In this document: one piece after another, positions 44,878-48,126 of the stretch | Layout: every line of letters starts with the position of its first letter | How positions within the stretch are numbered: the stretch's first letter is position 1 | Source: Pseudomonas alcaligenes | GTDB taxonomy: Bacteria > Pseudomonadota > Gammaproteobacteria > Pseudomonadales > Pseudomonadaceae | Assembly (NCBI RefSeq): GCF_014490745.1 | Contig: NZ_LZEU01000001.1 | Span: 2,383,501-2,447,500, forward strand | Direction of reading: 5' to 3' | Length of the DNA: 64,000 nt | Position numbers and translations under genes: made by a program | Notes under the pieces: generated by a model | Database searches by the model: none | What the model was told of the DNA's origin: nothing | The model's input: only the letters and a program-made list of their open reading frames with translations

Positions 44878-45237
44878 ATGGAAGTTGTCAAAACCCTCAA
44901 GCCCGGCAGTAACGGCACCAAACGCCTCGTCGACATCTACGGCGAAAGCCTGGTCGCCGTCCGCTACCGCCTCGACCGCGAAAAACAACTCAGCTACACC
45001 ACGGTCGAGCTGATCATCGAACACAAGCCAATCCTCGCGCCAACCCTAAACACTGCCGCTGCACGTTTGCACCAAGAACGCCAGCGTGTTGCCGTGCGCA
45101 TTCGCTATGCCGAAACAGAACTGCAGAGCCTGGTGAAAAAAGCCGGCGGCAAGTGGGATCCCGATAACCGTGTCTGGCTGATCCGCTACGGCGACGCGAT
45201 AAGACTCGGCCTCAAAGAACGGATCGTCCAAGAGTGA
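44878..45237 (+). CDS. Conserved protein of unknown function
   Basis: 119 residues: MEVVKTLKPGSNGTKRLVDI at the start and AGGKWDPDNRVWLIRYGDAI near the end. I recognise this layout (VKTLKPG-GTKRL then AGG-WDP--R-W-L) from short uncharacterised proteins in Proteobacteria, often in accessory DNA, but know no function. No signal peptide or membrane helix. Base composition is between that of the core genes and the A/T-rich island. It marks the left border of the accessory region. Confidence 0.65.
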   Translation: MEVVKTLKPGSNGTKRLVDIYGESLVAVRYRLDREKQLSYTTVELIIEHKPILAPTLNTAAARLHQERQRVAVRIRYAETELQSLVKKAGGKWDPDNRVWLIRYGDAIRLGLKERIVQE

Positions 45238-45247
45238 TGGTCAGATA

Positions 45248-45322
45248 TAGCCACGCGATGGCTACATCTGGGTATAGGTTCCTACATATAGGAAGCTATC
45301 CAGATGTAGGCATGTCGCCTAC
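45248..45322. other. Cluster of three adjoining hairpins at the left edge of the cassette array
   Basis: TAGCCA-cgcga-TGGCTA (45248-45264). A 19-bp stem follows, with TACATCTGG and CCAGATGTA as outer arms and TTCCTA/TAGGAA as inner arms (45263-45308). The third is GTAGGC-atgtc-GCCTAC (45306-45322). Neighbouring stems share bases, so they may switch. TTATAGTTAGGC, an R'-like cassette junction, follows. No RNA family recognised. Confidence 0.55.
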
Positions 45323-45342
45323 TTATAGTTAGGCCCACTTAA

Positions 45343-45753
45343 ATGAGCAATGAGATCCCAACAAAGAACATAAGCCCATACGGCTGGTGGGTAGCCACAT
45401 TAATAGAGCGCTTTGAATTTGATGATGAAGACAGATCAAACGATAAGCGCCGCTGTCGCGCATTTGCAAACACAGTAATCTTCAAAGCAGAAGATCGTGA
45501 GAAAGCCTATTTTAAAGCCATCGAATACGGCAACTTAGGAATTGACAATAAAAGCGACTGGTCAGATGGCAAAGGAAGAAAAGGGCGCTGGGTATTTGAA
45601 GGCCTATCCAGCTTGCTGCCTATTTATGACGAAATAGATCCTGACGGAACAGAAATTGCCTTTGAAGACAATTCAAATATAAGTGTCAGCAGGGTGAAAT
45701 CATGGGTTCGCAAAAAGATAGAGCTTGAAGCATTCGACGACTCAACGGATTAA
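45343..45753 (+). CDS. Cassette gene 1: DUF4288-like protein
   Basis: 136 residues, A/T-rich codons unlike the flanking core genes. The pattern SPYGWWVATLIERFEFDDED, AEDREKAYFKAIEYGN, GRWVFEGLSSLLPIYDEIDP, DGTEIAF matches DUF4288, a small soluble domain of unknown function common in accessory and cassette genes. The ATG lies 14 bp after a GTTAGGC junction with no Shine-Dalgarno sequence. An attC-like site begins at the stop codon. It is cytoplasmic by sequence. Specific role unknown. Confidence 0.72.
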   Translation: MSNEIPTKNISPYGWWVATLIERFEFDDEDRSNDKRRCRAFANTVIFKAEDREKAYFKAIEYGNLGIDNKSDWSDGKGRKGRWVFEGLSSLLPIYDEIDPDGTEIAFEDNSNISVSRVKSWVRKKIELEAFDDSTD

Positions 45754-45842
45754 GCCTAACAATGCGCTCAACTATCGCTCACTCCGTTCGCTGGACAGCC
45801 AAAAGCTACGCTTTTGTCTGCCCGTTAGCTTAATCGTTAGGC
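45754..45842 (+). repeat. attC-like recombination site 1 (89 bp)
   Basis: Begins GCCTAAC (R'', RYYYAAC pattern) directly after the cassette 1 stop and ends GTTAGGC (R', GTTRRRY), its exact complement. The middle folds back on itself (AGCCAAAAGC-TAC-GCTTTTGTCT). Size, end motifs and position after a stop codon fit an integron attC site. Confidence 0.82.
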
Positions 45843-45846
45843 ACAT

Positions 45847-46245
45847 ATGGAACAAACCCGAACCGACACAATATCCACTGACAACCCCAGCACGTTGCCG
45901 ACGTACTCGCCAACTACGGGTCCGAAACTTTGGAAAATTTTCTGGCTGGCATATGTCGCGCCAGTGGTAGCTTGGCATGTAGTTCTTAACTACATGTACT
46001 ACTCGCAGGCTTTTATTAGCACCATGATCTCAGCTGTGGAAATCACGGGCCTGCCCCCTAAAAAAGCAATATGGCTGTCAATCATTGCACCGCTATATTG
46101 CTACAGCATATTTTGCTGGTATTTGGTCTGGAAGCACGCAAGAAATACAAACATAAACATATGGGGTCATATTGCGAGGCTAGTTACGCTAGTGCATATG
46201 CTATGGTACGCATCAAAAGCCATCAGCACTTGGGCAGGTGCCTAA
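45847..46245 (+). CDS. Cassette gene 2: small membrane protein of unknown function
   Basis: 132 residues with a Thr/Ser/Pro-rich N-terminal tail (about 25 residues) and three membrane helices: FWLAYVAPVVAWHVVLNYMY, WLSIIAPLYCYSIFCWYLVW, and HIARLVTLVHMLWYASKAIS. No domain recognised. The ATG is 10 bp after the GTTAGGC junction. The stop lies inside the R'' motif of the next attC-like site, as in many integron cassettes. A/T-rich. Confidence 0.65.
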   Translation: MEQTRTDTISTDNPSTLPTYSPTTGPKLWKIFWLAYVAPVVAWHVVLNYMYYSQAFISTMISAVEITGLPPKKAIWLSIIAPLYCYSIFCWYLVWKHARNTNINIWGHIARLVTLVHMLWYASKAISTWAGA

Positions 46246-46327
46246 CAATGCGCTCAACTATCGCTCACTCCGTTCACTGGACGTCAAAAAGCTACGCTTG
46301 TTGTCACCCGCCAGCTTAACCGTAGGC
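46240..46327 (+). repeat. attC-like recombination site 2 (88 bp)
   Basis: GCCTAAC at 46240 and the first 40 bp are nearly identical to site 1 (AATGCGCTCAACTATCGCTC onward). The right end reads CCGTAGGC instead of CGTTAGGC, one T missing from R', so this site may recombine poorly. Confidence 0.75.
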
Positions 46328-46334
46328 CTTCTAG

Positions 46335-46850
46335 ATGAATAAATATATTTTCCGCTTCTTATTTATATTGGCAGCCTGCCCTAGCGCTCAAGCAGAGAGC
46401 AGCAAACATGAAAATTTCAAAGTCATTTCATTCTCTCAAGGGGAAATGAGAGAAATAGATGGGAATTGGGCGATTTACAAAGAGAACGAAGAACTAACAT
46501 ACAAAGCAAACGGGATATGCATTTTTAATAATAAGGCCATACCCTGCATGTGGTACGGGTATCTTTTAGAGTACGACTCATTTGGACGGGACGTAAATTT
46601 AATCTGCAACGACCACCAGGATTCACCCACTGACTTTGGCAATCCTAGCGAACTAATTGAGAAGAATGCTAAAGAATTTAGCTACACGATCCCGCTAAAG
46701 GGGACTGAAAGAACCTTCATTAACCTTCAGTACACCTCTGCTGGAGGCACAAATAAAATAACCAGATCTGCGACTACTTGCTCCGTGGACGGGAAGCCGG
46801 TTCTAAAATTTAAACAGAGTATCGTAATGGAGCGCCGTGTAAAAATCTAA
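46335..46850 (+). CDS. Cassette gene 3: exported protein of unknown function
   Basis: 171 residues. A signal peptide (MNKYIFRFLFILAACPSAQA) with cleavage after AQA near residue 20. The mature domain has about 150 residues and three or four Cys (GICIFNNKAIPCMWYGYLLE, NLICNDHQDS, TTCSVDGKPVLKFKQS), suggesting periplasmic disulphides. No domain recognised. A/T-rich, with the ATG 12 bp after the cassette junction. Confidence 0.62.
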   Translation: MNKYIFRFLFILAACPSAQAESSKHENFKVISFSQGEMREIDGNWAIYKENEELTYKANGICIFNNKAIPCMWYGYLLEYDSFGRDVNLICNDHQDSPTDFGNPSELIEKNAKEFSYTIPLKGTERTFINLQYTSAGGTNKITRSATTCSVDGKPVLKFKQSIVMERRVKI

Positions 46851-46903
46851 CAAGTCGTTCAGTAAACGACGCCACGCACTGTCGCTTAACTCTAGCGCTG
46901 ATC
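46845..46903 (+). repeat. Decayed attC-like site 3 (about 59 bp)
   Basis: R'' is ATCTAAC overlapping the cassette 3 stop. AAGTCGTTCAGT and GCTTAACTC follow the layout of short (59-base-element) attC sites. The expected GTTRRRY end is GCTGATC, with two mismatches. It probably marks the worn right end of the array. Confidence 0.5.
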
Positions 46904-47097
46904 TCCATTAGCTTAGCTGCCATATCGAAACCAGACGGTCGAGTCTGAGCAAAAATTGAGACTTACCAAATAGCAGCGGCAGGACAACTGGCTCTAAACT
47001 CGCTTCGGTTAAACCAGCAACAACACACAAATCCTAATCAGAAGATTTCTCCACATTCGAGACCTCCACGTAGAGCCAAGCAGCAAGGAGCGCCGCC

Positions 47098-47349
47098 ATG
47101 ACCATTCTCATATATGCAGCAATCGGACTAGCCCTCTTCATTATCGTCCGCACCTACACCTCCATGAAAATCCAGAGTCTGCGCGCTAAAGGGCTATATC
47201 CAGAGCCTGGCCAGGCAACAATGCAGCATGTTGTGAATCTAGTTAGCGCCGGCAACAAGCCTTTTGCTATCAAGGTTTATCGAGAAATTCACGGAGCAAG
47301 CCTGAAACAAGCCAAAGAAGCCGTTGAAAAACTAGCCAGCACGACATAA
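47098..47349 (+). CDS. Small membrane-anchored protein with a ribosomal L7/L12 C-terminal-like motif
   Basis: 83 residues. An N-terminal membrane helix (TILIYAAIGLALFIIVRTYT), a short linker, and KPFAIKVYREIHGASLKQAK, which resembles the helix-turn of the L7/L12 C-terminal domain (K-x-A-I-K-x-x-R-E-x-x-G-x-x-L-K-x-A-K). GCAAGGAGCG precedes the start. It lies to the right of the cassettes; no attC-like site follows. Function unknown; the similarity is by eye. Confidence 0.6.
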   Translation: MTILIYAAIGLALFIIVRTYTSMKIQSLRAKGLYPEPGQATMQHVVNLVSAGNKPFAIKVYREIHGASLKQAKEAVEKLASTT

Positions 47350-47408
47350 TCGCCAATTCGAAATTTCGCACCAGCCATCATCCAACGACCACAGAAAAGG
47401 AATACTTC

Positions 47409-47834
47409 GTGAAATCTATTACTTCGGTAATTCTTACAGTCCTGATTTCGTTCAGCGCCAATGTCTTGGCCGCCGAGGACTACGATGGCATACCCGAAAA
47501 TTTCATAAAGCTAATTGCAGCCAAGAAAATCCCAGAAGCAATTGACAGCCTGTACCCCAACGAAGGTTACTGGAGCACTCCGCAGGGAATTGCCGAGAAA
47601 GCCAATATTTCTGCAAAGTTCGTGAAATTCGGAGACTATCGCTTTCACCAGCTGCTTTCTGAGAAAAGCATCGTCGACGACCGCTACGTGACCCTCAGTT
47701 ACTTCGTTGGCTTTCAAAACAAGCCTGAGTTCTTCTCAATCACCCTGTACAAACCTGAAAACTCATGGACAGCAAGAGAGTTCAATTTCGGCGGCACTCC
47801 CGAGGAAACAAAGAACTTTAGCCTTCCGAAATAG
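47409..47834 (+). CDS. Exported protein of unknown function
   Basis: 141 residues from a GTG (AAGGA 8 bases upstream). Signal peptide MKSITSVILTVLISFSANVL ending near ALAAED (cleavage around 22). The mature part has about 119 residues (ENFIKLIAAKKIPEAIDSLY, YVTLSYFVGFQNKPEFFSIT, LYKPENSWTAREFNFGG). No Cys and no domain recognised; helix-then-sheet order could fit an NTF2-like fold. Composition is intermediate. Confidence 0.6.
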   Translation: MKSITSVILTVLISFSANVLAAEDYDGIPENFIKLIAAKKIPEAIDSLYPNEGYWSTPQGIAEKANISAKFVKFGDYRFHQLLSEKSIVDDRYVTLSYFVGFQNKPEFFSITLYKPENSWTAREFNFGGTPEETKNFSLPK

Positions 47835-48126
47835 CGCTGCCCTGCCATCGAGATACGGCTGCATGCCTAATCAGACCTTTCAAGGGCACAACCCTGCAGT
47901 CCGCACAGCCGGACAAGTTCATGATTGCTATCAGCCGTATACCGACAGCACTGCTTCCCCCTTGATGATCCGCCTACCGTAAGGCAGGCGACATCTTCCG
48001 CTGAAACGTCGCCGCCCCCCTCACACCGCCCAACGCAGCAGCACCGCCCGATAAAAGCCGTTCGAGCACCCAAGCCTGTTTGGCTTTCTATACTCAATTT
48101 CTATTCGGCTCGATGAGACTCCCGGA

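What the first reader, a model, noticed from the sequence alone, without database searches (positions are those of the whole stretch)
45329..46903. Integrase-less array of three gene cassettes (CALIN) in a Pseudomonas chromosome
Three A/T-rich genes of unknown function (DUF4288-like, three-helix membrane protein, Cys-containing exported protein) are each followed by an attC-like site at 45754-45842, 46240-46327 and a decayed 59-bp one at 46845-46903. Sites 1 and 2 start with GCCTAAC overlapping or touching the stop codon and share almost the same left half. Each start codon is 10-14 bp after the junction. No integron integrase is in the window, and the left junction (45328/45329, G followed by TTAGGC) has no attC partner, so the array either lost its integrase or was inserted at a secondary site. 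The cargo has no recognised role and could be defence or stress related.
Basis: partly seen in the sequence, partly recalled or inferred. Interest (0 to 1): 0.7.

Follow-up and report, generated by a model that had tools for sequence, protein, structure and literature searches.

The report
Satellite cassette array at second attI-like site
A small block of foreign genes in a Pseudomonas chromosome sits at its own conserved landing site, far from the enzyme that probably put it there, and the same genome carries four other such blocks, one of them beside the enzyme gene.

Summary
The cassette array is real, but it looks like neither an orphan nor a chance insertion. attC1 (45754-45842) is intact; attC2 (46240-46327) lost one T of its crossover core; site 3 (46845-46903) is unproven. 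The genome has one complete integron about 1.14 Mb away with the same attC type, and three more integrase-less arrays. These four arrays begin with a full ~70-bp attI, found nowhere else in the genome. The window array shares only the last 20 bp of that attI and is preceded by a 119-aa gene (44878-45237, 'p119') and a covarying hairpin. This module recurs: 10 of 10 intact Pseudomonas p119 copies found end at such a G|TTA junction; 9 lead into attC arrays. In the tenth the contig ends after 122 bp, of which 121 equal the first cassette of its intI-linked array. Of 52 core junctions compared across the genus, 44 show no trace of intI within up to 2.5 kb upstream. Best explanation: one integrase serves several dispersed attI-type platforms in trans, the window array being on the p119 type. 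IntI action at this site is inferred, not shown.

The parts
44878..45237 (+). p119: 119-aa gene of unknown function that heads the platform, read toward the cassettes
   Evidence: Relatives in 11 of 398 genus genomes and in two named Pseudomonas, one of them the same contig as one of the 11; no Pfam family over cut-off; no confident fold match
45235..45328 (+). Structured platform region starting at the p119 stop codon, with a long imperfect hairpin
   Evidence: Fold of 45238-45328 z -7.17 on + and -5.06 on -; 10 aligned copies, 10 of 21 predicted pairs with double changes
45313..45332 (+). attI-like core, ...GTCGCCTACTTATAG|TTAGG; cassette junction at 45328/45329
   Evidence: 20 bp, 95% to the intI-linked attI, E 0.049, fifth of only five matches in the genome
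45329..45836 (+). Cassette 1, ORF 45343-45753 (DUF4288-like, below cut-off)
45754..45842 (-). attC1, complete (bottom strand folds)
   Evidence: 113 bits, E 5.7e-28 (in the training set); z -3.63; 16 similar places by BLAST
45837..46322 (+). Cassette 2, ORF 45847-46245 (no family match)
46240..46327 (-). attC2, left half intact, L' and R' altered (R' lacks a T)
   Evidence: 88.3 bits (in the training set); z 0.29; boxes
46323..46897 (+). Presumed cassette 3, ORF 46335-46850 with an N-terminal signal-like stretch
   Evidence: its right end is uncertain
46845..46903 (.). Site 3, possible decayed attC, not supported by the model
   Evidence: 7.7 bits, E = 1; plasmid BLAST E 0.6

Best explanation
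The window holds a satellite cassette array on a second type of attI-like platform: the p119 gene, a ~90-bp hairpin region and a core ending CTACTTATAG|TTA. The integrase of the complete integron 1.14 Mb away, or an ancestor of it, inserted cassettes at G|TT by ordinary attI x attC recombination, acting in trans. The same enzyme served three further integrase-less arrays that carry full copies of its own attI. Shown: intact attC1, one attC family in all five arrays, a single intI, full attI copies only at array heads, a conserved p119 platform with different cassettes in different species, and one genome with the same first cassette at its p119 platform and its intI-linked attI. Inferred: that IntI recombines at the p119 platform; that p119 helps (by binding the hairpin or by carrying transcription into cassette 1); that cassette 1 can still move while cassettes 2 and 3 are frozen.
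For: Five arrays with one attC family in the genome. IntI over cut-off once in the genome. attI of the intI array at four array heads plus the 20-bp core at the window, nowhere else. p119 followed by a G|TTA junction in 10 of 10 intact copies, 9 with attC downstream in the DNA held. Covarying hairpin. First 122 bp at the G118 p119 junction equal the first cassette of the G118 intI-linked array at 121 positions. G148 shares a 319-bp segment at 94% between its p119 array and an attI array.
Against: No recombination was observed. The window platform shares only 20 bp with attI, at E 0.049. G148 and G392 have only broken intI, and 19 of 31 attI-bearing genomes have no TIGR02249 match over cut-off, so many satellites have no working enzyme now. 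attC2 is damaged and site 3 unproven, so the window array may be mostly inactive. G332 and R-28-1W-6 share their first p119 cassette (279 bp, 92%), so some content is inherited rather than newly inserted. No clean empty site was found.
Confidence: 0.68

Rival explanations
1. A degraded integron: an intI once stood beside this array and was deleted, and the platform is its leftover attI.
For: The usual reading of CALINs (PMC9024848, passages). In Desulfobacterales two of three p119-like loci lie beside IntI-like fragments. Broken intI exists at the main locus of G148 and G392.
Against: 44 of 52 core junctions, the window's included, have no intI trace at E up to 0.1 in the upstream DNA held, up to 2.5 kb, although an earlier tblastn gave weak N-terminal hits at two of them, L100 and L134. 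All 8 with intI or remains share one locus. p119, not intI, occupies the platform in the window and in all 10 intact copies.
Confidence: 0.15
2. A one-off insertion of cassettes at a random attG-like secondary site.
For: A G|TT junction is all that is needed, and this insertion is reported in E. coli (PMC12444791, passages citing it).
Against: The junction and ~90 bp before it are conserved with p119 in other species and at other loci, mostly ahead of different cassettes.
Confidence: 0.05
3. The hairpin is only a terminator or regulator of p119 and p119 merely lies before a place where cassettes gathered.
For: A terminator-like match lies at 45306-45322. p119 has no known function.
Against: Terminator-like sites number 4 against 2.8 in shuffles. 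The junction follows in 10 of 10 intact copies at more than one locus, and the last 20 bp match attI.
Confidence: 0.07

Closest known systems
[quoted passage not shown]
   Same: attC array without intI nearby; recurring loci are reported in Xanthomonas (PMC12444791, passages).
   Different: Four of the five arrays here begin with a full attI (one of them is the intI-linked array) and the window one with a p119 platform; the standard program does not look for attI outside class 1 (PMC9024848, passages).
Chromosomal integron of the Pseudomonas stutzeri type
   Same: attC of the 76-77 bp and ~89 bp kinds beside a TIGR02249 integrase in this genome. That the 76-77 bp kind is the one known from P. 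stutzeri is recalled.
   Different: Here cassettes are spread over five arrays with one integrase.
Truncated-attI cassettes and attI-like or attG secondary sites of class 1 integrons
   Same: attI-derived or attI-like sequence away from intI that IntI1 can recombine (PMC12901181, abstract and part 1 of the introduction; PMC10127599, passages).
   Different: Those are truncated attI ending a cassette, or scattered sites, not full attI heading chromosomal arrays.

Membership tests
CALIN | At least two attC sites together | tested here: met
   attC1 and attC2; two is the default threshold (PMC9024848, passages). attC2 is damaged.
CALIN | No integron integrase nearby | tested here: met
   No PF00589 match of the genome lies in the window; IntI is 1.14 Mb away.
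Complete integron | intI adjacent to attI and cassettes | tested here: not met
   Not at this locus; met at array E of the same genome.
attI site | G|TT crossover at the head of a cassette array | tested here: met
   45328/45329; G|TTA in 10 of 10 intact p119 copies.
attI site | Sequence related to the attI of the resident integrase | tested here: inconclusive
   Only 20 bp, 95%, E 0.049.
attI site | Bound and recombined by IntI | not testable with these tools
   Needs an assay.
attG insertion | Junction sequence neither attI-like nor conserved | tested here: not met
   Platform conserved in 10 copies.
Defence island cargo | Cassette genes match known defence families | tested here: not met
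   No PADLOC match for the three cassette proteins; unknown systems remain possible.

The most novel reading that the evidence does not exclude
Pseudomonas keeps a distributed integron: one integrase in trans and many attI-type landing platforms, including a second platform class that carries its own small protein (p119) in place of intI, with p119 acting on the hairpin to license or express cassettes. The attI copies spread without intI and are homogenised within a genome.
Probability: 0.35. Interest if true: 0.82.

Novelty: new variant of a known kind. Interest (0 to 1): 0.66.

Why it matters
Integrase-less cassette arrays are usually read as wreckage. If they have their own attI platforms served in trans, one integrase can build several arrays, each in its own transcription context, and programs that do not look for attI outside class 1 miss this. 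It also offers a small, testable gene family (p119) tied to cassette arrays. Where CALINs come from becomes directly testable in this genus.

Tried and rejected
Empty-site mapping: pieces of the left flanks of arrays A, B and D were searched in 16 relatives, and 28 of the loci were compared. The flanking genes are found but no clean empty site or target duplication; at locus B, G377 keeps 38 bp between the aligned flanks. For the window locus the relatives that I read closely either lack p119 and the array (L065, L066, L068) or keep a decayed p119 (L064), so no precise empty junction was seen.

Homogenisation of attI within genomes, kept as a side result: in the ~70 bp next to the crossover (last 20 columns left out) mean identity is 0.873 within genomes against 0.771 between, 30 within-genome pairs, 0.0005 by 2000 label shuffles; in the next 65 bp upstream 0.492 against 0.469, 0.21 (46 of 52 junctions used, dropped: G243, G332d and the four C-type). 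In 8 genomes with the intI locus the own intI-linked attI is nearest or joint nearest for 9 of 15 satellites, random mean 2.64, p 0.0003. Against it: G265 (0.67 within genome) and the 6 of 15 satellites nearer to another genome's copy. Shared function is not excluded as the cause.

Full report
What is there. The window is bases 2,383,501-2,447,500 of contig 1 of a 4.97-Mb genome whose nearest named neighbours in my searches are Pseudomonas. The three ORFs, their starts and stops and the G/TTAGGC junction at 45328/45329 are as described. attC1 is complete: R'' and R' pair fully, and L'' GCTCAAC pairs with L' GTTAGC leaving one base unpaired. Its bottom strand folds far better than shuffles (z -3.63), the top strand hardly (z -1.10). 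attC2 keeps the left half, but R' has lost a T and L' is altered, and its fold is at the level of shuffles (z 0.29). Site 3 scores 7.7 bits, E = 1, and stays unproven.

The genome around it. With 45250-46980 as a BLAST query, 17 places match; the 16 besides the window itself match through its first attC. A covariance model built from 19 sites finds 28 matches at E up to 1, with 150 of 2441 first-look candidates scored. 27 of them lie below 1e-4 and form five arrays: A (1,480,883-1,487,130, 11 sites), B (2,119,840-2,121,990, 3), the window, here C (2), D (2,538,566-2,542,085, 5) and E (3,569,583-3,571,905, 6); one match at E 0.43 lies elsewhere. The 19 training sites are among the 27. Array E stands beside a 352-aa integron integrase (TIGR02249, 515.7 bits against 265), between a radical-SAM/TRAM-domain gene and a TrmO gene. 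It is the only match over the cut-off listed for this genome.

Array heads. The attI of array E, just upstream of its first cassette, occurs in the genome at five places, searched to E 10: E (100% over 74 bp), B (97% over 69), A (96% over 69), D (94% over 68) and, over 20 bp only, the window junction (95%, E 0.049) (sequences). Each is an array head; no solitary copy was found. So A, B and D are integrase-less arrays with a full attI, and the window array has another kind of head.

The window's head. Upstream of 45329 lie a 119-aa ORF (p119, 44878-45237) and, from its stop codon on, a conserved stretch with a strong hairpin (z -7.17). A scan of named genomes with p119 gave five loci. Two are Pseudomonas (P. 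guryensis SR9 and sp. R-28-1W-6) with the same order (acyl-CoA-synthetase-like gene, p119, hairpin, G|TTAGGC) but different DNA after it. The other three are Desulfobacterales, two of them beside IntI-like fragments. In 398 genus genomes 11 have p119. With R-28-1W-6 there are 10 intact copies, and in 10 of 10 a G|TTA junction follows within about 100 bp of the gene; of the two decayed copies, one keeps it (G257) and one does not (G013). Nine of the 10 lead into attC sites: the window 2, G332 9, R-28-1W-6 7, G259 1, G060 5, G109 10, G154 11, G148 4 and a partial one, G377 1 just before its contig ends. In the tenth, G118, the contig ends 122 bp after the junction. Six of the 10, the window's included, follow the acyl-CoA-synthetase-like gene; the other four do not within the stretch fetched. 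In the aligned platform 10 of 21 predicted pairs show changes on both sides.

Is the p119 platform served by the same system? In G118 the first 122 bp after the p119 junction equal the first cassette of the intI-linked array at 121 positions. In G148 a 319-bp segment (94%) is shared by the p119 array and an attI array. R-28-1W-6 and G332 share their first p119 cassette (279 bp, 92%), so inheritance also occurs. The attC sites are found by the same model throughout. This is circumstantial; recombination itself was not seen.

The genus. The attI query matched 50 of 398 genomes at E up to 1e-3; at most two candidates per genome were scored, so copies are undercounted, and some hits are only about 25 bp. 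The core pattern GTCGYYTACTTATAGTTA with up to two mismatches matched 71 of 398; part of this is chance, since the same pattern read backwards also hits many genomes. I chose and fetched 45 of these places. In 37 of the 45 stretches model R2 finds attC at E up to 0.05; L101, L107, L108, L113, L122, L139, L140 and L141 have none (the place of each attC relative to the core was not checked one by one). With seven more junctions (five in this genome, L093, L094) 52 were compared. Left flanks put the intI locus in 8 genomes and the window locus in 4 of this set; most others are alone or in twos and threes. A profile of 10 IntI proteins finds intI or its remains upstream of 8 of 52, all at that one locus, and nothing at E up to 0.1 in the other 44 within up to 2.5 kb, some stretches being cut short by contig ends; an earlier tblastn had weak N-terminal hits at L100 and L134. 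Of 31 attI-bearing genomes 12 have a TIGR02249 match over cut-off; 10 of these hold one full-length gene and two only broken ones, no genome shows two full-length genes, and 19 have none over cut-off. So many satellites have no working enzyme today. In G265, G378, G166 and G380 intI lies away from the sites that I examined.

How it most likely works. IntI from array E recombines folded attC with double-stranded attI-type sites (established for integrons; PMC12901181, part 1 of the introduction). The window platform would be one such site, entered at G|TT. p119 is read toward the cassettes and may carry transcription into cassette 1; in P. stutzeri the cassette promoter lies within the integrase gene (PMC8876359, passages), which a satellite lacks. 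Cassette 1 is bounded by two intact cores and could still leave; cassettes 2 and 3 probably cannot. How attI copies spread without intI is open. Copies within a genome are more alike than expected next to the crossover but not further upstream, which suggests gene conversion, perhaps through shared cassettes, or selection to match one IntI.

What is known. CALINs have been proposed to be degraded integrons, and attI outside class 1 is not detected by the standard program (PMC9024848, passages). CALINs at recurring loci are known in Xanthomonas (PMC12444791, passages). My eight paper searches (listings only, apart from the passages cited) listed nothing that, by title or start of abstract, describes attI copies heading CALINs or a p119-like gene. 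The library lacks most subscription papers, so priority is not shown.

Cargo. DUF4288-like below cut-off, no family, and DUF5640-like far below cut-off; no defence-database match. Their functions are unknown.

Noticed in passing
L021:5051-5124 and many of the 52 compared junctions: The attI carries a small in-frame ORF (like MDKERYQTQVAENITPLVSSTYS) whose TAG stop is completed by the incoming cassette, as in ORF-11 of class 1 attI (PMC8876359, passages). In arrays A, B and D of this genome it is broken by TAA.
   Followed up: partly
L020:4901-5944 (minus strand): An IS110-family transposase gene (PF02371, 74.2 bits) lies inside the last attC of array D and splits it.
   Followed up: partly
L018 and L019 (arrays A and B): The same 75-aa cassette ORF (VESVQLNQAFLSH...) occurs in arrays A and B of this genome (406-bp match, 88%), so cassettes are shared between arrays.
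   Followed up: partly
window 46904-48126: A/T-rich stretch right of the array with two small ORFs, one weakly like the ribosomal L7/L12 C-terminal domain (24.5 bits, below cut-off) and one exported-looking; they could be former cassettes without attC.
   Followed up: no
L095 and L097 (Desulfobacterales): p119-like genes lie beside several fragments of integron-integrase-like genes, with no attC found by two scans.
   Followed up: partly
52 junctions, last ~70 bp of attI: attI copies in one genome tend to be alike next to the crossover while their upstream parts follow the locus, as in gene conversion.
   Followed up: partly
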